Of a stretch of 27,192 nt of DNA, positions 9,229 through 26,081 are shown piece by piece. The notes beneath the pieces were generated by a model that was not told where the DNA came from, made no database searches, and saw only the letters and a program-made list of their open reading frames with translations. Made by a program: the position numbers and the translations under genes. Position 1 is the first letter of the stretch. The number at the start of each line of letters is the position of its first letter. Source of the DNA: Lachnospiraceae bacterium (lineage in GTDB: Bacteria; Bacillota_A; Clostridia; Lachnospirales; Lachnospiraceae); NCBI GenBank assembly GCA_016291475.1, contig JAEEXJ010000039.1, forward strand, positions 1-27,192. The letters run 5' to 3'.

Positions 9229-10134
9229 TTATTTCTCTTTGTACTTGTCCGGAACTATCTGCACGATCATTATCGCCGCAAACATCAGAATGCTTCCGGT
9301 CAGTTCCCTGGAAGTGAGCTTTTGATGAAGGATCAGAAATCCTCCCAGAACGGAAAACAAAGCTTCCGCACTCATGAGGATCGATGCCACATAAGGCTCT
9401 ATCCTGGACTGGCATATGATCTGTATCGTATACGCGATCCCGCCTGATAAAACGCCGGCATACAAAAGAGGTATCATCGCTGCCATTATGGAGGACATCT
9501 TTACATCCTCGAGAGCAAACATAAAAACAGCGCTGGTTACCGTTACGGTCAAGAACTCGATGAAAGCCAGCTTTACGCTGTCATACTCTCCCGAGAACGA
9601 ATCAATTGCCAGGATCTGAAGCGCAAATACCACCGCACATCCTATCAGATAAAGATCTCCGGGCGTTACGGTAAGGCTTCCGCTCATGGTCAGGAAATAC
9701 AGCCCTATCACGGCAAGAACAATTCCGATCCATACATTTATCCCTATCTTTTTTTTCAGGAAAAGCCCCATGACGGGAACGATAACTATGTACATGGCAG
9801 TTATGAAGCCGGCTTTCCCCACCGAATCGGTTTTCAGGATACCTATCTGTTGCAGATTAGATGCAAGGGATAAGAGTATTCCTATGGTTATTCCGGCTCT
9901 CCACAGCCTTTTGTTTTTCCAGGAACAGGCCTCAGGATCCTTCCCCGCGTTACCGTATCTGTCGTGCACAAAAGAAAACGCAAAGACCACTGCCGCGGCC
10001 ATGGCAAATCTTACTGCCGAAAAAGTAAAGGGGCCCACCTTCTCCATTCCGATGCTCTGAAATGCAAAGGCCAGTCCCCATATAAGCGCTCCCACAAGCT
10101 GGAGCAGCGCAAACAGGAAACGATTCTTTTTCAT
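9229..10134 (-). CDS. EamA/DMT-superfamily transporter
   Basis: An integral membrane carrier of the drug/metabolite transporter superfamily, 301 residues with about ten hydrophobic segments in two repeated EamA halves. GALIWGLAFAFQSIG opens the first half and VGKAGFITAMYIVIVPVMGLFL is a typical family stretch. A charged hydrophilic loop (HDRYGNAGKDPEACSWKNKR) separates early helices. It is the last gene of the five-gene operon: its ATG shares one base with the stop of the short Enzyme I gene (TAATG), a sign of translational coupling. The substrate is unknown. The context (pentulose-phosphate and polyol genes) hints at export or import of a sugar, polyol or related metabolite, which is inference only. 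A terminator follows directly. Confidence 0.93.
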   Translation of the reverse strand: MKKNRFLFALLQLVGALIWGLAFAFQSIGMEKVGPFTFSAVRFAMAAAVVFAFSFVHDRYGNAGKDPEACSWKNKRLWRAGITIGILLSLASNLQQIGILKTDSVGKAGFITAMYIVIVPVMGLFLKKKIGINVWIGIVLAVIGLYFLTMSGSLTVTPGDLYLIGCAVVFALQILAIDSFSGEYDSVKLAFIEFLTVTVTSAVFMFALEDVKMSSIMAAMIPLLYAGVLSGGIAYTIQIICQSRIEPYVASILMSAEALFSVLGGFLILHQKLTSRELTGSILMFAAIMIVQIVPDKYKEK

Positions 10135-11519
10135 TATGACTTTCTTTCCTTGTAGACTTTATGAATATGATCCCTGATCTCCTGATCTACCGGGATCTTA
10201 AGGATGTCGGATGAAAGCTTCCTCGCATCCTCTTCACTCCACTCCGAAAGAGTTCTTCTGACCTCTGAAACAGAGAGAGGATTTACGCTGAACTTTCTGC
10301 ACCCGAAACCCGCAAGTATCGGAATGACTTCAGGATCGGAAGCAGCTTCTCCGCAGACCGAAACCTCTATACCTGCCGATTTTGCGGAATCGAAAATATG
10401 CTTCAAAAGGCGCAGGATCGAAGGCTGGGTTACAGACTGAAGGTAAGCCACTCTGCTGTTCCCTCTGTCTGCGCTCATTACATACTGTACAAGATCGTTG
10501 GTCCCGATGGAAAAGAAATCGCATTCACCCGCAAGCTTATCCGCCATGATGGCGGCCGAGGGCGTTTCTATGGTTGCTCCTACTTTGATGTCATCGTTAA
10601 AATCAAATCCCTCATCACGAAGATCGCTCTTAATCTCGTGTATCAATGATTTGATATTTCTCATCTCCTCAATGCATGTGATCATGGGGATCATGATGGA
10701 CAGATTGCCCCCCGCACTGGCACGTAAAATTGCACGGAGCTGCGTGGTAAATATATCCCTGTGACCGAGGCTGTATCTGACTCCTCTGTATCCCAGAAAA
10801 GGGTTGTCTTCTTTTTCAAGGTCCAGAAAAGGAATGCTTTTGTCTCCGCCGATATCCAGAGTTCTGACGGTAACTTCTTTGCCTTTCATAGCGGATACGA
10901 TCCTGGAGTAGACTCTGGTCTGTTCGTCCTCATCAGGTATCCTGCCCTCACCGGAGAGAAGATTTTCCGTTCTGAAAAGTCCTATTCCTTCTCCGCCCTC
11001 ATCGATCGCATGCATGACACTTAAGATATCCGAAGCATTACACAAAACAGAGGCTTCTGTACCATCAGCCATGACTGTCTTCAGATTGCGATAGCCTTTC
11101 AGTTCCTCGAGATCCGCGAGGTTTTTTTTTCTTTTGGCGGAATATGAGGCGACTATCTGAGGATCCGGTCTTTCGTATACATATCCGCTGCTGCCGTCCA
11201 CGATCACCGTATCTCCGTCGGCAATCTCTTCGGTTGCACGCACCACATCATAAACCGCAGGAATACCCATGGACTTTGCAACAAGTGCGGAGTGTGAAGC
11301 CATTCCGCCGTTCTCGCAAACAAGTCCCGCAATGCTGTAATCCTTGAGCAGTCCCACCATATAGGGAGTAAGCCGGGATGCCACAAGAACCGCTCCCGGT
11401 TTCATATCGGATATCGCTGCGATATATTCCTCATTACTCATCACTTCATTTCCCTGAGATGAGATAACCTTTGCGATCCCGATTCCTATTCCTTTAGATA
11501 CTACAGATCCGTTTAACAT
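10134..11519 (-). CDS. PTS Enzyme I-like PEP phosphotransferase lacking the HPr-docking domain
   Basis: A cytosolic PEP-dependent His-autokinase related to Enzyme I (PtsI), 461 residues against about 570 usual. The first 20 residues match the beginning of Enzyme I (VSKGIGIGIAKV). After a short linker it enters the swivelling phospho-His domain: GGMASHSALVAKSMGIP with His76, equivalent to His189 of E. coli. The C-terminal PEP-binding barrel is intact: FRTENLL, RTLDIGGDK, NPFLGYRGVRY, SIGTNDLVQY, and active Cys389 in VCGEAASDP. Both His76 and Cys389 are offset by 113 residues from E. coli numbering, which pinpoints one missing block corresponding to the HPr-binding helical subdomain. Start ATG 11519 has AGGATGG upstream and lies 9 bases after the dehydrogenase stop, so the short form looks genuine. 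Transfer to normal HPr is unlikely; the acceptor is unknown. Confidence 0.9.
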   Translation of the reverse strand: MLNGSVVSKGIGIGIAKVISSQGNEVMSNEEYIAAISDMKPGAVLVASRLTPYMVGLLKDYSIAGLVCENGGMASHSALVAKSMGIPAVYDVVRATEEIADGDTVIVDGSSGYVYERPDPQIVASYSAKRKKNLADLEELKGYRNLKTVMADGTEASVLCNASDILSVMHAIDEGGEGIGLFRTENLLSGEGRIPDEDEQTRVYSRIVSAMKGKEVTVRTLDIGGDKSIPFLDLEKEDNPFLGYRGVRYSLGHRDIFTTQLRAILRASAGGNLSIMIPMITCIEEMRNIKSLIHEIKSDLRDEGFDFNDDIKVGATIETPSAAIMADKLAGECDFFSIGTNDLVQYVMSADRGNSRVAYLQSVTQPSILRLLKHIFDSAKSAGIEVSVCGEAASDPEVIPILAGFGCRKFSVNPLSVSEVRRTLSEWSEEDARKLSSDILKIPVDQEIRDHIHKVYKERKS

Positions 11520-11528
11520 ATATCCATC

Positions 11529-12641
11529 CTACAGAAGGGTCATGACTTTGACATAGTCTTCCGTCTTATCCCTCATTATCTCAAAACCTTTTATAAGATC
11601 TTCAAATCCCAGCCTGTGTGAAATGAGTTTTTCCGGAGAGATCCTGCCTTCTTCAAGCGCCTTCAAAACCATATGCCAGTCGTCATTCTCTTCTCCGGTA
11701 AATGATGAATTCCAAGTACCGGTTACTTTAAGCTGCTTTCTAAGGATTTTCCAGTATTCATCCTTTGCAAAACTCATATCGGATGCCGGATTTCCGACAA
11801 GCTGAAGCTTTCCGCCTCCGCCAAGAACATTTAATCCGAGGCTTACGGATTCATTTCGTCCGACGCATTCCAAATATACGTCTGCGCCATCTCCTCCCGT
11901 AACCTCGTTTACAAAAGTGACAGGATCGCTACTTTTGATATTGCAGAATCTGTCCTCGGCAATCCCGAATGCCTTTGCATATTCAGCCTGACATTCCTTA
12001 TTGCCTATGCAAAAAATGCTTTTATAACCCATACCTTTCAGGAGCATAAGAGCAAACAACCCGATGGTTCCCATTCCGGATATCACTATTCTTAGATTTC
12101 TTTCATTTTCATCCGGTTCAAGGGATAGTCCGCACTGCCTCAGGGAATGCATAGATACGGAAATGGGTTCAAGCATGGCTGCCTGTTCGAAAGTTACATT
12201 ATCAGGAAGTTCTATAAGATTTGATGCGGGGACCTTAACATACTCGGCAAATCCGCCGTCGCATCTGGAACCAAGATAATTATAGTTCTTACACATCTCA
12301 TACAGTTTCTTTTTACAGGAAGAGCATTTCCTGCAGGGAATAAGAGGAAAGATCCCAACCCTCTTTCCGATAAGGCTTTTCAGCGCTTCGCTTCCCGCTG
12401 AAATAACTTCGCCGCTGAATTCATGTCCCGGAATCAAAGGATGGTAATAGGCACCCGTTTTATATATTCTGGGAATATCTGAGCCGCAGACTCCCGCAGC
12501 TCGCACCTTCACAACGACACACTCTTGTTCCGGAACCGAAGTCTGTCCGTTTCTTCCGCATATTCCGCTTCCATCATGTGCAGGTGCTTTGGCTTCCCTA
12601 TATGCGATATCGGAAATTCCGTTTAATATGTATGCTTTCAT
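11529..12641 (-). CDS. Zinc-dependent polyol-phosphate dehydrogenase (GatD-like)
   Basis: A medium-chain NAD(P)-dependent dehydrogenase, 370 residues, interconverting a polyol (phosphate) and its ketose. The catalytic zinc site is visible as Cys52 (VCGSD), His73 and Glu74 (GHEFSG). The structural zinc site is Cys103, 106, 109 and 117 (CX2CX2CX7C). The cofactor fold has GMGTIGLFAL. CGSDIPRIYKTGAYYHPLIPGHEFSG and YLGSRCDGGFAEY closely resemble galactitol-1-phosphate 5-dehydrogenase GatD. No galactitol PTS genes accompany it. An upstream overlap (ATGA) with an IspD/TarI-type cytidylyltransferase suggests a ribulose-5-phosphate reductase role (TarJ-like) making ribitol-5-phosphate. Compared with GatD there is an extra segment of about 20 residues at roughly 21-40. 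Enzyme class is secure; the substrate is inferred from context. Confidence 0.9.
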   Translation of the reverse strand: MKAYILNGISDIAYREAKAPAHDGSGICGRNGQTSVPEQECVVVKVRAAGVCGSDIPRIYKTGAYYHPLIPGHEFSGEVISAGSEALKSLIGKRVGIFPLIPCRKCSSCKKKLYEMCKNYNYLGSRCDGGFAEYVKVPASNLIELPDNVTFEQAAMLEPISVSMHSLRQCGLSLEPDENERNLRIVISGMGTIGLFALMLLKGMGYKSIFCIGNKECQAEYAKAFGIAEDRFCNIKSSDPVTFVNEVTGGDGADVYLECVGRNESVSLGLNVLGGGGKLQLVGNPASDMSFAKDEYWKILRKQLKVTGTWNSSFTGEENDDWHMVLKALEEGRISPEKLISHRLGFEDLIKGFEIMRDKTEDYVKVMTLL

Positions 12642-13318
12642 CTGCAGGTTACCTCTTCAAATTTGGCCATATCCGCAGGAGTTGTTATCTTGAAATTGTT
12701 CTCGTCACCCGGGATGGTTTTGATCTTCAATCCGGCCATTACCGCAGGTTGCATGGAACCGCTTATATTCATGATCACATCGGGAAGAAGATCCTCGTTG
12801 GCTTTAAGATAAGGACCGAATCTGAATCCCTCCGGAGTCTGCCCCGCAGCAATTCTGCTTCTGTCGAGATTGGAAACAACCATTCCGTTTTCAACTTCAT
12901 ATACGGTATCTTTCATCGGAAGGATGGGAAGAACCGCATCACAGGATTTTAATTCCTCTGAGATCTTTCTTATCGTTTCTGCCGATACAAGAGGTCGCGC
13001 CGCATCATGGATGATAACTCCGTCTCCATCACCCAAAGTTTCCTTCAGCGCATTCAATCCCGATAAAACAGAGAGCTGTCTGGTCTCTCCGGGAAGTGCA
13101 AAGCCCACAAACTTAGAACTGCCTGCAATGCTTTTTCCAATCAACTCCCTGTACTCTTTGGCACATACGATCAATATCCTATCAATGTCAGGGGACTTTT
13201 CGAAGGTCTCTATACTGTATGCAATTATCGGTTTACCGGATACTTCAAGGTACTGTTTGGGAACATCGCTTCCCATCCTCGTACCCGTTCCTCCGGATAA
13301 AATAATCGCCGCTACCAT
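12638..13318 (-). CDS. IspD/TarI-family CTP:sugar-alcohol-phosphate cytidylyltransferase
   Basis: Transfers CMP from CTP to a polyol phosphate, in the cytosol. 226 residues, normal for the family. The CTP-binding loop LSGGTGTRMGSDVPKQYL contains Arg14 and Lys21. IHDAARPLVS, AAGQTPEGFRF and KITTPADM are the other family blocks. IspD (methylerythritol phosphate pathway, isoprenoids) and TarI (ribitol-5-phosphate, CDP-ribitol) cannot be separated by these motifs; HDAARP leans slightly to IspD. Context leans to TarI or another CDP-polyol enzyme: it sits between a pentulose-phosphate epimerase and a polyol-phosphate dehydrogenase, overlapping the first by one base (TGATG) and the second by four (ATGA). 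Whether the genome carries another IspD elsewhere would decide. Confidence 0.88.
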   Translation of the reverse strand: MVAAIILSGGTGTRMGSDVPKQYLEVSGKPIIAYSIETFEKSPDIDRILIVCAKEYRELIGKSIAGSSKFVGFALPGETRQLSVLSGLNALKETLGDGDGVIIHDAARPLVSAETIRKISEELKSCDAVLPILPMKDTVYEVENGMVVSNLDRSRIAAGQTPEGFRFGPYLKANEDLLPDVIMNISGSMQPAVMAGLKIKTIPGDENNFKITTPADMAKFEEVTCR

Positions 13319-13980
13319 CAGAATTCCATGCTCCTGATCCCGCTTATGATTTCTTTATAAGATGCCTTATGTCCGAAAAGGACCGAAGTGCCCAGTACAA
13401 ATCCGCCCATTCCCATGGGAGCGTATGTCTGTATCTTATCCATGGTGCATGCTCCGTCCCATATCAGATCAAAGTGCATGGTCTTCTGAAGTTCCAGGAG
13501 ATACCTGATCTTCTCACCGACATATGGCAGGAACATCTGGCCTGCATTTCCCGGATTTACCGACATGACCAGAACCTTGTCCACAATTCTGAGAAGCTCC
13601 AATATAGATTCGACACTGGTTCCGGGGTTTATTGCTATACCGGGAGTTATGCCGGCGTTTATGATCTTTTGCAGGGTTGTGGAAGGATGATACTCCGCTT
13701 CCGGATGAATATAGACAATGTCGCCCGGTCTCAGAAGATGCAGGAACATCTCGATATTATTGTTCGGATGCTCGATCATCAGATGTACATCAAGAGGCTT
13801 ATCAGTAGCCTGTGCGATGTACTTCATGTCATAAAGACTCATGGCAAAGTTCGGAACATATCTTCCGTCCATGATATCAATGTGAAAATAATCCACCCCG
13901 GCTTCTTCGAGTTTTTTCACTTCCTCATTGAGATTTCCGAAGTTCGCACACATCATAGAAGCATGAATATTAAATCTCAT
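13318..13980 (-). CDS. Ribulose/allulose-phosphate 3-epimerase family protein
   Basis: A TIM-barrel epimerase, 220 residues, that inverts C3 of a ketose phosphate. The metal and acid-base ligands are all present: His33 and Asp35 (FHIDIMDG), His66 (DVHLM) and Asp175 (IWDGACT). MSVNPGNAGQMF is the phosphate-side loop, equivalent to VxPGFxGQ. IWDGACT, in place of the VDGG of housekeeping Rpe, and the overall look place it nearer AlsE-type D-allulose-6-phosphate 3-epimerases or an Rpe paralogue. It is the first gene of a five-gene operon, with GGAGGGTAAT before the ATG and its own promoter at 14013-14042. In this setting a plausible role is to supply ribulose-5-phosphate (from xylulose-5-phosphate) to the dehydrogenase and cytidylyltransferase; this is inference. 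Confidence 0.9.
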   Translation of the reverse strand: MRFNIHASMMCANFGNLNEEVKKLEEAGVDYFHIDIMDGRYVPNFAMSLYDMKYIAQATDKPLDVHLMIEHPNNNIEMFLHLLRPGDIVYIHPEAEYHPSTTLQKIINAGITPGIAINPGTSVESILELLRIVDKVLVMSVNPGNAGQMFLPYVGEKIRYLLELQKTMHFDLIWDGACTMDKIQTYAPMGMGGFVLGTSVLFGHKASYKEIISGIRSMEF

Positions 13981-14056: not shown

Positions 14057-14839
14057 TCATATAAGCCCGTAATACTTAAATGCTTTATATATTCCGTCCT
14101 CATAGATCGAGTCGGTAACATAATCGGATGCCATCAAAAGCTCGGGATTACCCTGTCCCATTGCTATTCCGTGGGCTGCGGCTTTGATCATCTCCATATC
14201 GTTCATTCCGTCTCCGACAGCATATATATTCTCTGCAGGAACGTCGTAATATTTTCTGACAAACTCCATTCCGGTTGCCTTGGAGTGACCCTTCGGGACA
14301 AATTCAACCACGATATTATTATGATTGATCTCATACAGGAAATCATCGAGTTTTTCGCATACAAGATCGTAGTCCGTTTCATCGGTGATATCCGCGCTGA
14401 ACTTATTAATGGGATCGTCGCAGGTGACGGTATCAAGTTTTTTAGCTCTTTCTCCGAGAGATTCCCAAAGCGTTTTGGCAAAAGGATCATCAGGAAAATC
14501 CTCAGGATCGAAGAAACAGTTCCTGCTCCCTTCAAGCACAAGAGGCATGTGCTCATCGTGCAATACTTTTAGCGAGGTCTGAACCTGGTCCCATGTAAGA
14601 AGCTTTTGGTAAAGTATCTCTCCACCTATCTCGACATGGCATCCGCAAGCTGCCACCACACCGTCCATGCCAAGTTCATCAAGTGCCTTGTACATCGTAT
14701 TGGATCTGGAACGTCCTGTGTTGATGAATACCTTATTGCCCATCAATCTTGCAAGGCGTATGGCATCCTTGGTGCTTTCCGGGATGCGAAGTGTTTCATC
14801 CCAGATGGTCATATCTATATCAAGAAATATCAGATTCAT
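14057..14839 (-). CDS. Cof-type HAD phosphatase
   Basis: A haloacid-dehalogenase superfamily hydrolase of the Cof (type IIB cap) group, 260 residues, cytosolic. The nucleophile motif is DIDMT with Asp7 and Asp9. Motif II is INTGRS, the motif III lysine lies in PKGHSKATGM, and motif IV is GDGMNDMEM. These proteins dephosphorylate sugar phosphates, PLP or FMN, and sequence alone does not give the substrate. Its ATG overlaps the stop of the upstream DUF6020-like gene by four bases (ATGA), so the two are translationally coupled. Placement after three membrane proteins suggests a substrate in the same envelope-sugar pathway, as inference. Confidence 0.92.
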   Translation of the reverse strand: MNLIFLDIDMTIWDETLRIPESTKDAIRLARLMGNKVFINTGRSRSNTMYKALDELGMDGVVAACGCHVEIGGEILYQKLLTWDQVQTSLKVLHDEHMPLVLEGSRNCFFDPEDFPDDPFAKTLWESLGERAKKLDTVTCDDPINKFSADITDETDYDLVCEKLDDFLYEINHNNIVVEFVPKGHSKATGMEFVRKYYDVPAENIYAVGDGMNDMEMIKAAAHGIAMGQGNPELLMASDYVTDSIYEDGIYKAFKYYGLI

Positions 14840-20610: not shown

Positions 20611-22302
20611 TCATTTCAATATTTCTTTTATACGCTCTACGGTCTCCGCTTCGAGCACAAGGGATGCAAGGCTCCTGCAGCTGGACATGGTAAGTCCGCG
20701 GACCGTCTTTTTGATCTCGGCTATTTTATACGGTGACACACTCAGATTTCTGACTCCCAGCCCCAAAAATACCGGTATTATACAGGGATCAGACGCTGCT
20801 TCGCCGCATACGGTAACAGGTATTCCCACACTGAGGGCCGCATCACAGATCTGCCTGACCGCTCTTAAGACAGCAGGCTGATATATGGTTACATATCCCG
20901 ACAATGCAGGATTTCCCCTGTCGGCACACATAATGTATTGTGACAGATCATTGGTTCCTATGGAAAAGAAATCGACTTCTCTGGCAAGTTCCTTTGCACA
21001 CATCACCGCAGCGGGTGTTTCCATCATGCACCCGAGCTTTATATCCTCACGATATGATATGCCGTGTTTTCCGAGTTCATACCTGCATCCCTCTATAAGA
21101 TGCCTTGCCTCTATGACCTCGGAAAGCGACGTTACCATAGGGAGCATTATATCGATATTTCTTCCTTTTGACGCTTTAAGGATTGCCTTAACCTGGATCA
21201 TAAAACCGTCCGGATCCAGAAGGCTTCTTCTGATACCGCGCAATCCGAGAGCAGGATTATCCGCATGGCTCTCGCTTTCAAGAAGAGAATCCGGACCTTT
21301 GTCCCCACCCACATCCATGGTTCTGATAACCGTATTCTTTCCCGCAAAAGAATCCGCTATCCGGGCATAGATCTCCTCCTGCTCATTCTCGGGATAATTG
21401 AGATCTCCGGTCATGAACAAAAATTCCGTTCTGACAAGTCCCGCTCCGTCTGCCAAAGCAGCTTCATCGGGAACATCACCGGAGCTTATATTACACAGCA
21501 CGCCTATCTCTGTTCCGTCCTTGGTCTTTACAGGCTCCGCAGCTGCAGGCTTTACACTTGCCACCGGCTTAACCTCAGGGATATATTTTCCTGAGTACTT
21601 ATTCTTTTCTTCCGCAGTGGGATCGATTATTACTACTCCGGATTTACCGTCTACAATACATTCTTTGTTACCCGATACATCATCAGGTGCATAAGGAACT
21701 CCGAATACTGAGGTGATCCCCATTGACCTGAGTATTACCGCGGCATGGGACGCTTCGCTTCCGCCGCGCATCACAATAGCCCTTACTTTTTCCGCCTTAC
21801 AGCTTACTATCTGTGCGGCAGAAAGCCTGTCTGCAAAAATGACATCTCCGTCATCTTGGGGATCACTGTTTTGGAGAGTGCCGCTTTCGCCTCCCATAAG
21901 AGACATAATACCGTTCTTTACTTCTTCAAGATCTTCGTTTCTTGCGATCAAAGTCTCATCGCCCGAAGTGTTGAGAATATCAGCATATTTCCGGCACGCT
22001 TCTTCAATCGCATCTTCCGCGAACATTCCGGAATCTATCAGTTCGAGAACCTCATCCGAAAGCACAGGGTCTCTGGATATCATGATCTGGGCTGAAATAA
22101 TATCCTTGCCTTCCTTGGTGGAGCTTTCCGATGCGATAGTTTTCATGGAACTTTCGTATTCCAAAAGAGCATCAAAAAAACGCATCCTTTCGAAGTCAGC
22201 GTCAGCCTTCTCCCGCTTTGTCTCGCCGGAGCCTGACGCAAACCTCGCACGGATACGTCCTATTACGATTCCATCTTTAATGGGTAATCCTTTATACTTC
22301 AT
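20611..22302 (-). CDS. ptsI: PTS Enzyme I, full length (PEP-protein phosphotransferase)
   Basis: A cytosolic kinase that takes phosphate from PEP and passes it to HPr, 563 residues, close to the usual 570. The HPr-binding helical region is present (about residues 25-145, including IISAQIMISRDPVLSDEV). The phospho-His is His186 in GGSEASHAAVILRSMG. The PEP-binding barrel has VRTEFLFM, RTMDVGGDK, NPALGLRGIRRSL, SIGTNDLSQY and active Cys in VCGEAASDP. An Ala/Pro-rich linker (KPAAAEPVK) joins the halves. The ATG overlaps the end of the phosphofructokinase-like gene by 11 bases, with GAAGG as ribosome site. No HPr or EII gene is visible in the window, so partners are elsewhere. It is the normal counterpart of the short Enzyme I at 10134-11519. 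Confidence 0.95.
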   Translation of the reverse strand: MKYKGLPIKDGIVIGRIRARFASGSGETKREKADADFERMRFFDALLEYESSMKTIASESSTKEGKDIISAQIMISRDPVLSDEVLELIDSGMFAEDAIEEACRKYADILNTSGDETLIARNEDLEEVKNGIMSLMGGESGTLQNSDPQDDGDVIFADRLSAAQIVSCKAEKVRAIVMRGGSEASHAAVILRSMGITSVFGVPYAPDDVSGNKECIVDGKSGVVIIDPTAEEKNKYSGKYIPEVKPVASVKPAAAEPVKTKDGTEIGVLCNISSGDVPDEAALADGAGLVRTEFLFMTGDLNYPENEQEEIYARIADSFAGKNTVIRTMDVGGDKGPDSLLESESHADNPALGLRGIRRSLLDPDGFMIQVKAILKASKGRNIDIMLPMVTSLSEVIEARHLIEGCRYELGKHGISYREDIKLGCMMETPAAVMCAKELAREVDFFSIGTNDLSQYIMCADRGNPALSGYVTIYQPAVLRAVRQICDAALSVGIPVTVCGEAASDPCIIPVFLGLGVRNLSVSPYKIAEIKKTVRGLTMSSCRSLASLVLEAETVERIKEILK

Positions 22303-23227
22303 CGAATACCTTCATTATGTCTTCATACCCGGGAAGCTTGCCTTCAAATACGGCTGCGCTTCCTGCAGCAACTCCGAGTTTAAGCGCATAACCCGGATCA
22401 TGTTCATCGAGGAATCCCTTGATAAATCCGGCAGTCATCGAATCACCCGCACCGAATGCACCCAGTGCTTTTCCGGCAGGAGCCTTGCACTTATGAACAT
22501 CACCGTTCTTATCAAGAAGCAGAGCACCGTCTGCCCCCATAGATACTATAACATTCTCAGCGCCTTCTTTGTGAAGTTTTTCTGCCTCTTTTATGATATC
22601 TTCGACAGATTTTAATTCCTTTCCCGAAGCCTGGCAGAGTTCTTCGAGATTAGGCTTGATGAGGAAGGGCTTAAACTTCAGAGCCTTCTTAAGTCTGTCG
22701 CCCGTCATATCCACTACGATCTTAACGCCTTCGGGCACGGATCTTAAGATCCTCTCAAGAGTATCCTCAGGTGCCTTGGCAGGCATACTGCCCGCAATAA
22801 CAAGGAAATCCTCGTCGGTCAGTTTCTCTATTTTCTCGCAGAGTTCTTCAACCGACTCGTCCTCAACCAAAGGTCCCGCAGCATTAAGTTCGGTCTCTTC
22901 GTATCCGCGCTCAGCCTCATCTTCAAAAGGGGTTCTGATCTTAACATTGATACGGCTTATTCCGTTCTTGTAAGGAAGCATGATAAAACCGGTACGGATT
23001 CCGATGCTTCTTAATGTTCCTTCGATCTCATCTCCGGTGGCGCCTGCTATAAATCCGAGAGCCCTTGAGGGAACATCCAGATTCTTCAGCACAACGGAAA
23101 CATTGATTCCCTTACCGCCCGCACGAAGTTCTTCCCTGCCGGATCTGTTTGTGCCGCCCTTTTTAAGGTAAGCAGAAGGATACATTACATAGTCAAGGGA
23201 CGGGTTCAATGTAAGAGTGTAGACCAT
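22292..23227 (-). CDS. fruK: PfkB-family hexose-phosphate kinase, probable 1-phosphofructokinase
   Basis: Phosphorylates fructose-1-phosphate (or tagatose-6-phosphate in LacC relatives) with ATP in the cytosol. 311 residues, normal for the family. The sugar-binding block AGGKGINVSVVLKNL (GGKG at 37-40) and the anion-hole/catalytic motif GAFGAGDSMTAGF with Asp262 are intact. The N-terminal MVYTLTLNPSLDYVMY is typical of FruK/LacC. The ATG at 23227 has GGAGG upstream and lies 2 bases after the trkH stop; its end overlaps ptsI by 11 bases. Pairing with ptsI supports a role in PTS sugar metabolism, and FruK is the likeliest identity, but LacC-like specificity is not excluded. Confidence 0.88.
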   Translation of the reverse strand: MVYTLTLNPSLDYVMYPSAYLKKGGTNRSGREELRAGGKGINVSVVLKNLDVPSRALGFIAGATGDEIEGTLRSIGIRTGFIMLPYKNGISRINVKIRTPFEDEAERGYEETELNAAGPLVEDESVEELCEKIEKLTDEDFLVIAGSMPAKAPEDTLERILRSVPEGVKIVVDMTGDRLKKALKFKPFLIKPNLEELCQASGKELKSVEDIIKEAEKLHKEGAENVIVSMGADGALLLDKNGDVHKCKAPAGKALGAFGAGDSMTAGFIKGFLDEHDPGYALKLGVAAGSAAVFEGKLPGYEDIMKVFDEV

Positions 23228-23229
23228 TT

Positions 23230-24675
23230 TTATTTCCTCCTTGGTTTCAACATGCTGAAGAAAAGCAGCATAGGGAACAGTTCGAGTCTTCCCGCAAGCA
23301 TGTCGAAGATCAGTATTATTTTCGAATACGCGGAAAAGAAACCGTAGTTACATGTGGGTCCGACAAGAGAAAGGCCGGGGCCGATGTTATTGATGGTTGC
23401 GGCAACCGCGGTAAATCCCGTTGTGAAATCATAGTTCTCGATACTTACGAACAAAAGCGAAATGAAGAATATCACAAAATAGATCGAGATAAATACGTTG
23501 GTAGACCTTATGACAGGCTCTTTAACAATGTTCCCGTCCATTCTAAGAAGTTTGACCTCCCTGGGATGACGGAGTACGGACAGTTCCTTGGCAAACTGCT
23601 TCATAAGAAGGACTATCCTGTATACCTTGACGCCGCCCGCGGTAGAGCCTGAGCATCCGCCTATCATCATGAGCATAAGAAGTATGGTCCTTGAAAGTTC
23701 CGGCCACATATCAAAGTCCGCAGTCGAATATCCGGTGGTTGTCATGATCGAAGCCACCTGGAAGAACGCATGGCGAAGCGAATCCCCCGTACTCTGATAC
23801 AGGTGACTGATATTGAACGCGATAATGGCGGTCGAAGCAAGTACGATCGCAAGGTAATATTTTACTTCCTCGATATGGAAAGCTTCTTTTATCTTGCGGG
23901 ATATTATAAAGAAGTAAAAGGTATAGTTGATCCCGCTGGCAGCCATAAATACCGCGATTATCATCTGCTGTACGGCAGTGTATGTTCCGCAGGATTCATT
24001 GACAAGTCCGAAACCGCCGGTTCCGACCGTACCAAATGTCAGAAGCGCGGATGAATAAAGATCCATTCCCGAGATAAGAAGTGCGGCCATTTCAGCTATG
24101 GTGATACCGAAATACATGCTGTACATAAGCCTTGCCGTATCGCGCACATGGGGAACGATCCTCTCTACGGAAGGTCCGGTGGACTCAGCTCTCATCAGGT
24201 TCATATCGGAAGTGCCGAGCATGGGAAGAACCGCCATCATGAACATGAAGATTCCCATACCGCCGATCCAGTGCATAAAGCTCCTCCAGAACATTCCGGA
24301 TCTGCTGAGCACGGTTACATCGGAAAGGATACTTGCTCCGGTAGTGGTAAATCCGGAAACGGTTTCAAACAGAGCGTCGATGTAATCCGGGATATCACCG
24401 CTGAGCATAAGTGGGATCGCACCGAATACGGAAAGTACGACCCAGCACAGAGCAACTATTATATATCCTTCTTTGAGGGAAAGATTTTTTCCCGGCTTTA
24501 TCCTTGCAAGGGGAATTCCGGGAACAAGACATATAAAGACGGTGAGAAGATACCACATCCAGTTACCGTCCCTATATATTAATGAGATAATCATGGGAAG
24601 GAGCAGAAAAGCACTCTCAAACAATAAAAGTATTCCCACGATATAAAGGATTATCGAATTCTTTTTCATGATCAC
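23230..24675 (-). CDS. trkH: Potassium uptake channel subunit TrkH/KtrB family
   Basis: A K+-translocating membrane protein of the superfamily of K+ transporters, 481 residues. Four pore-loop repeats with their filter glycines are recognisable: FTTTGASI, TVGTGGFG, IMTTTGYST and TINNIGPG. Length and HWIGGMGIFMFMMAVLPMLG look TrkH-like rather than the shorter KtrB. The start is GTG 24675, in a GTGA overlap with the trkA stop; AAGGAG lies 8 bases upstream. An alternative ATG two codons later would have a spacing of 14 bases. It works with the TrkA regulator encoded just before it. Transcription continues into the fruK-like gene after only 2 bases. Confidence 0.95.
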   Translation of the reverse strand: MIMKKNSIILYIVGILLLFESAFLLLPMIISLIYRDGNWMWYLLTVFICLVPGIPLARIKPGKNLSLKEGYIIVALCWVVLSVFGAIPLMLSGDIPDYIDALFETVSGFTTTGASILSDVTVLSRSGMFWRSFMHWIGGMGIFMFMMAVLPMLGTSDMNLMRAESTGPSVERIVPHVRDTARLMYSMYFGITIAEMAALLISGMDLYSSALLTFGTVGTGGFGLVNESCGTYTAVQQMIIAVFMAASGINYTFYFFIISRKIKEAFHIEEVKYYLAIVLASTAIIAFNISHLYQSTGDSLRHAFFQVASIMTTTGYSTADFDMWPELSRTILLMLMMIGGCSGSTAGGVKVYRIVLLMKQFAKELSVLRHPREVKLLRMDGNIVKEPVIRSTNVFISIYFVIFFISLLFVSIENYDFTTGFTAVAATINNIGPGLSLVGPTCNYGFFSAYSKIILIFDMLAGRLELFPMLLFFSMLKPRRK

Positions 24676-26027
24676 TCGAGAATCTCCTTGATATTGGCGA
24701 TCCTTCCGCCGCTCATGACTATAATGACTCTGTCTCCCACCATCAGTTTATCCTGACCTGTGGGAATAATATTCCTGCCGTTTCTGAAAACGCTGCAGAC
24801 AATGGCATCCTTTCTGATCTTAAGGTCTTTAAGCATTACACCCGTAACGGCAGATTCCTCTTTGATCTTAAACTCTATCGCCTCAGCCTTTCCGTCTTCA
24901 AGCTTATAAAGCGATTCAACGTCGTTGGAAGGATCCGTGGAGAGCGAACGGGCGAATTTAACGATATAATCCGCTGTGATCGCCGAGGGATTGATTATCG
25001 TATCGAGATTCAGCGCATCTATTACGGAACCGAAGTTAAGTCTTCCGATCTTGGTTACGACCTTGGCCTTGGAATGCTTTCCGGCATAAAGGGACAGAAG
25101 TATGTTCTCTTCATCAAGTCCCGTAAGTGCTGCAAACCCCTGAAATGAGGACAGTTCCTCCTGATCAAGAAGGTCTCTGTTTGTTCCGTCTCCGTGAATG
25201 ATCCTCGCTTGGGGAAGTCCTTCGGAGAGCTCCTCGCATCTCTTGTAATCCATCTCAACGATGGTGGTTTCGATACCGGATTTTATGAGTCTTTCGGCTA
25301 GATAGTAAGACAGAGTTCCGCCGCCTACGATCATGGCATTTCTTACCCTGCCCTTTACAACACCAAGCTTTTTAAAGAATGCCAGGGCATCCTTTCTGGT
25401 AGTGGCGATGCTTACGTCATCATCTGCGGCAAAAGAGAAATTACCTTTGGGTATGATGACCTCCTTGCCTCTTCTGATAGTGCAGACGATTATTCCCTTT
25501 AATATGTCTTCTCTGAGAATCGAAAGAGCCTGTCCGCAAATGGGCATTTCTTCGGTTACATGGAAATGGAAAAGCTCCACTCTTCCGCCCGAAAAGGTAT
25601 CGATCTTAAAGACCTGAGGGAAGAGAAATACTCTGGATATCTCCATTGCGGCGGTATCTTCCGGATTGATGACCATCGCAAGGTTAAATTCTCTCTTGAG
25701 GAAATCTATCTCATGTGAGTAGATAGGATTCCTGACTCTTGCTATGGTCTTGCATCTTCCGGCTCTTCCGGCGATAAGACACGCAAGAAGGTTCTTCTCA
25801 TCGGAATCCGTGACCGCTATAAAGAGGTCGCATTCCTTAATGCCGGCCTCAAGAAGTGATTGGTAACTGACACCGTTACCTATTACTCCCATGGCATCGT
25901 AATGATTGGTTACCGCTGCTATTGCCTCACTGTCCTCATCGACAAGTGTTATATTATGATCTTCGCTGGACAGCAGCTTGGTGATAACCATACCTACCTT
26001 ACCGCATCCGACAATGACTATGTTCAT
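24672..26027 (-). CDS. trkA: Trk system potassium uptake regulator TrkA (two RCK halves)
   Basis: A peripheral membrane regulator that gates TrkH in response to NAD(H)/ATP-type ligands. 451 residues in two tandem RCK units. The first Rossmann motif is VGCGKVG (Gly7, Gly9, Gly12), followed by an acidic VDED strand end. A second, less canonical one, IVGGGTLSYYLAERL, lies near residue 230, each followed by a TrkA-C-like region. ATG 26027 is preferred because CCGGAGGATTT precedes it; an upstream in-frame start at 26066 has no ribosome site and adds residues unlike the family. First gene of the operon; the stop overlaps the trkH start. Confidence 0.95.
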   Translation of the reverse strand: MNIVIVGCGKVGMVITKLLSSEDHNITLVDEDSEAIAAVTNHYDAMGVIGNGVSYQSLLEAGIKECDLFIAVTDSDEKNLLACLIAGRAGRCKTIARVRNPIYSHEIDFLKREFNLAMVINPEDTAAMEISRVFLFPQVFKIDTFSGGRVELFHFHVTEEMPICGQALSILREDILKGIIVCTIRRGKEVIIPKGNFSFAADDDVSIATTRKDALAFFKKLGVVKGRVRNAMIVGGGTLSYYLAERLIKSGIETTIVEMDYKRCEELSEGLPQARIIHGDGTNRDLLDQEELSSFQGFAALTGLDEENILLSLYAGKHSKAKVVTKIGRLNFGSVIDALNLDTIINPSAITADYIVKFARSLSTDPSNDVESLYKLEDGKAEAIEFKIKEESAVTGVMLKDLKIRKDAIVCSVFRNGRNIIPTGQDKLMVGDRVIIVMSGGRIANIKEILE

Positions 26028-26038
26028 AAATCCTCCGG

Positions 26039-26050
26039 GGCATATATGCC
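26039..26050. repeat. 12-bp perfect palindrome in the trkA leader
   Basis: GGCATATATGCC is self-complementary and sits directly before the trkA ribosome site, in the predicted 5' untranslated region. It could be a protein-binding operator or a small stem limiting ribosome access; it could also be chance. Confidence 0.35.
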
Positions 26051-26081
26051 ACCTTTTTACGCCCAAAACACTACATGATGT

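What the first reader, a model, noticed from the sequence alone, without database searches (positions are those of the whole stretch)
10134..11519. Enzyme I variant with the HPr-docking domain cleanly missing but all catalytic elements kept
Seen: His76 and Cys389 are both displaced by 113 residues from the E. coli positions (189 and 502), so the loss is one block between the first beta segment and the swivel domain. The gene has its own ribosome site and start, tight operon spacing and no frameshift debris. Known: that block in Enzyme I is the helical subdomain that binds HPr. Inference: the protein should still autophosphorylate from PEP but must deliver phosphate to another protein or a small molecule, perhaps a pathway intermediate in its operon. 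It could be an undescribed PEP-driven phosphotransferase class.
Basis: partly seen in the sequence, partly recalled or inferred. Interest (0 to 1): 0.72.

Follow-up and report, generated by a model that had tools for sequence, protein, structure and literature searches.

The report
Enzyme I lacking its HPr-docking domain
A group of gut bacteria, several of them from the rumen, keeps a working-looking copy of Enzyme I, the protein that starts a well-known sugar-uptake relay, with the part that grips the next relay protein (HPr) removed, so it probably passes its phosphate to some other, still unknown partner.

Summary
The minus-strand gene 11519..10134 encodes a 461-aa Enzyme I (EI) without the helical HPr-docking subdomain. 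Sixteen conserved active-site positions keep one offset of 113 from E. coli numbering. An AlphaFold model (pLDDT 88) shows a complete phosphohistidine swivel domain plus the PEP barrel. It is not debris: 29 protein clusters (28 of them 456-465 aa) and 14 Lachnospiraceae genomes share it; it is one clade (100/100), under purifying selection (dN/dS 0.025-0.068), with all 16 positions invariant in 19 of 19 proteins. It is the natural counterpart of a laboratory construct, E. coli EI(1-21,146-575), whose H189A form binds PEP about 12-fold tighter than H189A full-length EI.

Two points change the picture. Each of the 14 genomes also has a divergent full-length EI ("EI2"; window 22302..20611) with the docking domain. 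And the neighbours proposed as substrates are not tied to it: the Rpe/IspD/ADH cassette is missing at this place in 7 of 14 loci. The genomes have HPr with His15, but no EIIA of two families tested and no ordinary EIIC of the one family tested.

Most likely it is a PEP-driven histidine phosphodonor cut off from HPr, feeding an unidentified acceptor. The acceptor is inference. New variant of a known kind.

The parts
10134..11519 (-). EIs: short Enzyme I of 461 aa without the HPr-docking subdomain (strand 1-19, linker about 20-40, swivel 41-118 with His76, hinge helix 120-143, PEP barrel 146-425 with Cys389)
20611..22302 (-). EI2: divergent full-length Enzyme I (563 aa) that kept the docking subdomain; paralogue of EIs
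22292..23227 (-). PfkB-family kinase, adjacent to EI2; a PfkB-EI pair also occurs in relatives in which no EIs was found
9229..10134 (-). EamA/DMT-family transporter overlapping the EIs stop; present in 12 of 14 covered loci
14057..14839 (-). Cof-type HAD phosphatase upstream of EIs or of the cassette, present in all 14 covered loci
11529..13980 (-). Patchy cassette: Rpe-like epimerase (13980-13318), IspD/TarI-like cytidylyltransferase (13318-12638), zinc alcohol dehydrogenase (12641-11529); absent at this place in 7 of 14 loci, so not needed there for EIs

Best explanation
EIs is a natural Enzyme I core that binds PEP, dimerises and phosphorylates its own His76, but is cut off from HPr because it has no docking subdomain. 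It works as a PEP-driven histidine phosphodonor to an acceptor other than HPr (a protein or small molecule not yet identified, not tied to the adjacent cassette). The HPr relay is left to EI2. SHOWN by sequence: architecture, intact catalytic set, purifying selection, single origin, coexistence with EI2 and His15-HPr. INFERRED: PEP autophosphorylation (from invariant residues, and from the engineered E. coli EI lacking EIN-alpha, which closes on PEP more tightly), dimerisation, loss of HPr transfer, and existence of another acceptor.
For: All 16 active-site positions are invariant in 19 of 19 EIs, including the His and the Cys; that the Cys serves PEP/pyruvate chemistry is recalled. For comparison, 3 of the 16 vary in 56 ordinary EIs and 1 in 16 EI2. 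dN/dS is 0.025-0.068 against four relatives. The model is confident, with a complete swivel and barrel, and aligns to phosphorylated EI 2hwg at TM 0.84 by query length. No free-standing PF05524 domain was found that could dock HPr in trans: one match per genome in 14 of 14, in EI2. EI2 keeps the docking subdomain, including the conserved Arg at its position 121 (R in 15 of 16, K in 1). A genome without EIs (G021) still has EI2 and an HPr with His15, in otherwise intact synteny, so the HPr relay does not need EIs there. Lee et al. 2017 (PMC5537066; I read sections 4, 11, 12 and 15 and passages) made EI(1-21,146-575), the same cut. Its H189A form bound PEP with KD 0.037 against 0.43 for H189A full-length EI, because the hinge penalty is gone.
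Against: No acceptor was found; no neighbour is both constant and an evident phosphoacceptor. EIs was lost without trace in G021, so it is dispensable there. The same data fit a PEP sensor or a helper of EI2. No activity was measured here, and I found no autophosphorylation data for the E. coli deletion construct: the protein measured was H189A, and the 2013 paper cited for the approach was not held.
Confidence: 0.5

Rival explanations
1. EIs is a partner of EI2: the two paralogues form heterodimers (or EIs phosphorylates the swivel of EI2), so EIs supplies a strong PEP-closing barrel while EI2 supplies the HPr-docking arm.
For: EI2 co-occurs with EIs in 14 of 14 EIs-bearing genomes, within the fetched stretch of the same locus in 10 of 15 loci, and no other EI was found in those assemblies. 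EI is active as a dimer (PMC5537066). [quoted passage not shown]
Against: EI2 occurs without EIs in G021 with the locus otherwise intact, and in G015 as far as assembled. EI2 keeps the active-site positions in 16 of 16 rows, but for one G-to-A at one position. The two dimer-interface loops differ between EIs (canonical-like) and EI2.
Confidence: 0.2
2. EIs is a PEP/pyruvate sensor or slow PEP hydrolase: the closed-biased core reads the PEP level and acts by binding, with no dedicated phosphoacceptor.
For: The E. coli construct lacking EIN-alpha binds PEP about 12 times tighter than full-length EI, both H189A, as a sensor would need. No acceptor is evident in the locus.
Against: The phosphoryl-accepting His76 and the other active-site residues are invariant, including Cys389, which a pure sensor would not need.
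Confidence: 0.15
3. EIs still phosphorylates HPr-A, through weak docking on the swivel domain alone, and is simply a second, poorer Enzyme I.
For: HPr-A was found in 13 of 14 genomes, with His15 in the 12 sequences printed, and EIs scores above the NCBIfam Enzyme I cut-off (439.7 against 341.7).
Against: The whole subdomain described as the HPr-binding one (PMC5537066) is missing, and with it (recalled) Arg126, named in a cited title on phosphoryl transfer.
Confidence: 0.1
4. EIs is a decaying ptsI copy.
For: It was lost cleanly in at least one lineage, G021.
Against: The architecture is uniform across 29 clusters, dN/dS is 0.025-0.068, and the active-site positions are invariant.
Confidence: 0.03

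Closest known systems
Enzyme I of the PTS (PtsI, TIGR01417; PDB 2hwg, 2hro, 2wqd)
   Same: Swivel phosphohistidine domain and PEP barrel in the same order, 28-40% identity to full-length EI structures in the Foldseek rows, and the same active-site positions
   Different: The helical HPr-docking subdomain (PF05524) is missing; a linker of about 20 residues replaces it
Engineered E. coli EI lacking EIN-alpha, EI(1-21,146-575) (Lee et al. 2017, PMC5537066)
   Same: Practically the same cut: strand 1 joined to the swivel, no helical subdomain
   Different: A laboratory construct (H189A) for thermodynamics; EIs is a natural, conserved gene family with the histidine kept
Pyruvate phosphate dikinase and PEP synthase
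   Same: Swivel histidine domain plus PEP barrel without the HPr-docking helices (structural match TM 0.50-0.67 by query length)
   Different: They carry an ATP-grasp domain as the other end of the transfer; EIs has none. EIs is nested among EIs in the EI tree (no dikinase was in that tree)
Regulatory PTS without permeases (group R EI of PMC2405797; Brucella incomplete PTS, PMC2937029)
   Same: EI, HPr and HprK present without ordinary sugar EIIC of the family tested
   Different: Brucella's has EIIA proteins, per the abstract start of PMC2937029; here two EIIA families gave 0 hits, and there are two EIs of which one lacks the HPr-docking part

Membership tests
Enzyme I (PtsI) | PEP-binding barrel with PEP/Mg ligands and catalytic Cys | tested here: met
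   PF02896 336 bits; residues invariant 19 of 19
Enzyme I (PtsI) | Phosphohistidine swivel domain | tested here: met
   PF00391 77 bits; His76 invariant in 19 of 19; complete swivel in the model
Enzyme I (PtsI) | Helical HPr-docking subdomain (PEP-utilisers_N) | tested here: not met
   No PF05524 match; alignment gap over the subdomain
Enzyme I (PtsI) | Descent from Enzyme I | tested here: met
   Nested among EIs mostly of Clostridia, full support for its own clade; TIGR01417 above cut-off
Enzyme I (PtsI) | Phosphorylates HPr | not testable with these tools
   Needs an assay
PPDK / PEP synthase | ATP-grasp (PPDK_N, PF01326) domain in the protein | tested here: not met
   Not found in the protein; genome matches lie mostly in other ORFs of 600-900 aa, the rest being short partial ORFs of 96-202 aa
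Split EI with docking domain supplied in trans | A free-standing PF05524 protein | tested here: not met
   Only one PF05524 match per genome, in EI2, 14 of 14 genomes (in G013 the EI2 frame is split)

The most novel reading that the evidence does not exclude
These bacteria have split Enzyme I into two services: EI2 drives HPr, and EIs is a second PEP-to-histidine donor wired to a different, unknown acceptor. That would be, as far as my searches show, the first naturally HPr-independent branch starting from an Enzyme I.
Probability: 0.42. Interest if true: 0.8.

Novelty: new variant of a known kind. Interest (0 to 1): 0.6.

Why it matters
Enzyme I is usually taken to mean 'phosphorylates HPr', and where a source names these proteins it calls them PtsI or PEP-protein phosphotransferase (P0014 and P0027). 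A natural EI with the docking part removed and the chemistry kept either reveals a phosphotransfer branch with a new acceptor or shows how EI becomes a PEP sensor. Because the same cut was studied in E. coli by calorimetry, the prediction (tight PEP binding, closed state, no HPr transfer) can be tested directly.

Tried and rejected
Pathway-intermediate acceptor from the operon: rejected as stated, because the Rpe/IspD/ADH cassette is absent at this place in 7 of 14 loci and EamA in 2 of 14 (whether they lie elsewhere in those genomes was not searched). Docking domain relocated to another gene: not found. A standalone ATP-grasp half making a split dikinase: not evident; most PF01326 matches lie in ORFs of 600-900 aa, and the few short ORFs (96-202 aa) with partial matches were not followed up. 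A DhaM or EIIA-man acceptor: 0 of 16 genomes; EIIA_2: 0 of 14. EIIA-glc (PF00358) and EIIC families other than PF02378 were not tested. Matched loss of His15 in the Crh-like HPr-B: rejected, because relatives with full EI also lack it in the sequences printed.

Another family of the same architecture elsewhere: a 300-residue query restricted candidates to 165-525 aa; of 2320 hits the best 120 were listed. Of the 89 new short proteins among them, only two (P0123, P0124, partial EIs relatives) join strand 1 to the swivel; a third that passed the motif filter (P0154) begins inside the docking domain. Ten others read in full, several on contigs of 8-300 kb, also begin inside or just after the docking domain. 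Hits below the 120 were not seen.

Structure: the single-sequence AlphaFold job gave pLDDT 38 and was not used. Paper searches for a natural EI without the docking domain listed none. PMC2405797 was seen as passages and section 5 only; PMC8295985 as passages; PMC2937029 only as the start of its abstract in a listing. Names of active-site residues other than His189, Arg358, Gly356, Asn352 and Glu350 are recalled, as is the place of Arg126 in the docking subdomain. Control note: the HprK family search did not ring in the B. subtilis control genome, so that control is imperfect. The genomes are mostly MAG drafts without stated completeness, so absences are of what is assembled.

Rows dropped: three EI2 rows that duplicate other loci and the split EI2 of G013 were left out; L107 was labelled EI2 by hand at 49.3% identity; EIs of L007 and L015, cut by contig ends, were not used there.

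Full report
WHAT IS THERE. The gene lies on the minus strand, 11519..10134, 461 codons before the stop. The protein has the PEP-utiliser mobile domain and the PEP-binding barrel and no PEP-utilisers N-terminal domain. Against E. coli EI in the PDB, residues 36-459 match 149-572, an offset of 113. Sixteen active-site positions, His76 and Cys389 among them, keep that offset by recalled numbering. Residues 1-19 still align with the first strand of EI. A linker of about 20 variable residues follows, then the rest of the swivel domain. The AlphaFold model from 44 sequences (pLDDT 88.3, pTM 0.86) has a complete swivel domain with one short helix where the docking helices would be, a hinge helix and a full barrel. 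Foldseek puts EI structures first, with TM 0.84 by query length to phosphorylated EI 2hwg. I call the protein EIs.

IT IS A FAMILY, NOT A BROKEN COPY. In a search of 5.8 billion proteins (7969 candidates scored, best 120 listed) the first 29 clusters (P0002-P0030) all lack the N-terminal domain; one is 435 aa and 28 are 456-465 aa, at 56-100% identity. Below them the hits change abruptly to ordinary EI (about 46-50%), apart from one odd duplicated protein and one partial. A genome scan gave 15 loci in 14 Lachnospiraceae genomes; the titles of 6 of the 15 loci name a rumen or omasum sample. All 16 active-site positions are the same in 19 of 19 EIs compared; in 56 ordinary EIs, 13 of the 16 are. 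dN/dS against four relatives is 0.025-0.068, with synonymous sites near saturation in three of the four. In the tree of 91 rows EIs are one clade at 100/100. Among 143 relatives searched with the barrel family, the short architecture was listed only in the same 14 genomes; the list of matches was cut at its lower end. Among the 89 further short proteins listed by a length-restricted search, only two partial EIs relatives join strand 1 to the swivel.

NEIGHBOURHOOD. The order PfkB, EI2, MATE, two unknown proteins, DUF6020, HAD phosphatase, [Rpe, IspD, ADH], EIs, EamA, GGDEF (opposite strand), IleS, GlgP recurs, with single genes missing or inserted in some loci. The bracketed cassette is present in 7 and absent in 7 of the 14 loci that cover it; the window has it. 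EamA is present in 12 of 14. So the pathway next door cannot be the general reason for EIs. The cytidylyltransferase resembles IspD and ribitol-5-phosphate cytidylyltransferases, and the dehydrogenase galactitol-1-phosphate dehydrogenase.

THE SECOND ENZYME I. The window also encodes a full-length but divergent EI, EI2, at 22302..20611. In the 14 genomes the barrel family occurs in EIs, in EI2, and in a dikinase-like ORF of about 890-900 aa in 7 genomes, the same in split frames in 1, and pieces at contig ends in 3; no other EI was found. The docking family occurs once per genome, in EI2 (in G013 its frame is split). EI2 keeps the active-site positions in 16 of 16 rows except one G-to-A at one site, and most conserved docking residues; changes include His to Gln at EI2 position 72 and Phe to Leu at 110, each in 16 of 16. 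In 9 of 20 relative loci fetched, a full-length EI of the ordinary kind, the only barrel match in its genome, sits next to a PfkB gene. The tree places EI2 with 7 of those 9 PfkB-linked EIs (97/80), and EIs as sister to that group (99/96); the other two fall elsewhere. EIs and EI2 are therefore paralogues, and EI2 keeps the older position. One genome, G021, has the syntenic locus with EIs and EamA missing without remnant and EI2 present. Its EI2 is sister to that of G012, which has EIs, so this is most simply a loss.

REST OF THE RELAY. Thirteen of 14 genomes have an HPr of 91-101 bits; the 12 sequences I could print keep His15. Two further HPr-like proteins lack it in the sequences printed. 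HprK is present in 16 of 16 genomes. PTS_EIIC (PF02378) occurs in 1 of 14 genomes, there fused to an EAL domain. EIIA_2 is found in 0 of 14 and EIIA-man in 0 of 16. EIIA-glc and other EIIC families were not tested.

MECHANISM. Lee et al. 2017 (PMC5537066; sections 4, 11, 12, 15 and passages read) describe EIN-alpha (25-143) as the HPr-binding subdomain. They built EI(1-21,146-575), which removes it. The H189A form of that protein bound PEP at KD 0.037 (unit garbled in the held text; -10.1 kcal/mol) against 0.43 (-8.7) for H189A full-length EI, because closing no longer costs the hinge motion. EIs is the natural version of that construct with the histidine kept. I infer that it closes readily on PEP and phosphorylates itself, and that it does not serve HPr. 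With all active-site residues retained, a phosphoacceptor other than HPr is the best reading (0.5). A heterodimer or helper role with EI2 (0.2) is weakened by EI2 living alone in G021 and by the different dimer loops. A PEP sensor (0.15) and weak HPr transfer (0.1) are not excluded.

NOVELTY. By descent it is an Enzyme I; by the tested docking feature it is not a complete one. Literature searches listed no natural EI of this form, within an open-licence library that misses most subscription papers. I rate it a new variant of a known kind.

Noticed in passing
window 20611-26066: A divergent full-length Enzyme I (EI2) sits beside PfkB and TrkH/TrkA potassium-uptake genes; in the 9 ordinary PfkB-EI pairs of relatives no Trk match was seen in the fetched stretches.
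   Followed up: partly
L185 8325-12211 (genome G003); L186: The His15-bearing HPr gene lies directly behind a DAC (cdaA-like), a YbbR and a phosphoglucomutase/GlmM-like gene (in G009 the gene sizes and order match). Together with EI2 beside Trk this hints at a regulatory PTS linked to potassium and c-di-AMP.
   Followed up: no
L187 5189-7282: A PTS_EIIC domain fused to an EAL domain, the only PF02378 match in 14 genomes.
   Followed up: no
11 of 16 genomes searched (e.g. G003:C3 185-193 kb): Nearby ORFs of about 840 and 760 aa with PPDK_N and the PEP-utiliser mobile domain but no match to the PEP-binding barrel family.
   Followed up: no
window 11529-13980: The Rpe/IspD/ADH cassette is patchy within one clade (7 of 14 loci), suggesting repeated gain or loss at a fixed site.
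   Followed up: partly
L184 15556-18105 (genome G021); L190 11846-12817 (genome G006): A heavy-metal P-type ATPase gene (cut by the contig end in L190) follows MATE in this locus in two genomes.
   Followed up: no
L181 6180-9906 (genome G036): Two Enzyme I genes flank an HPr gene in one relative.
   Followed up: no
L106/L141 (genome G013): The EI2 reading frame is split into two ORFs; assembly error or real break not resolved.
   Followed up: no
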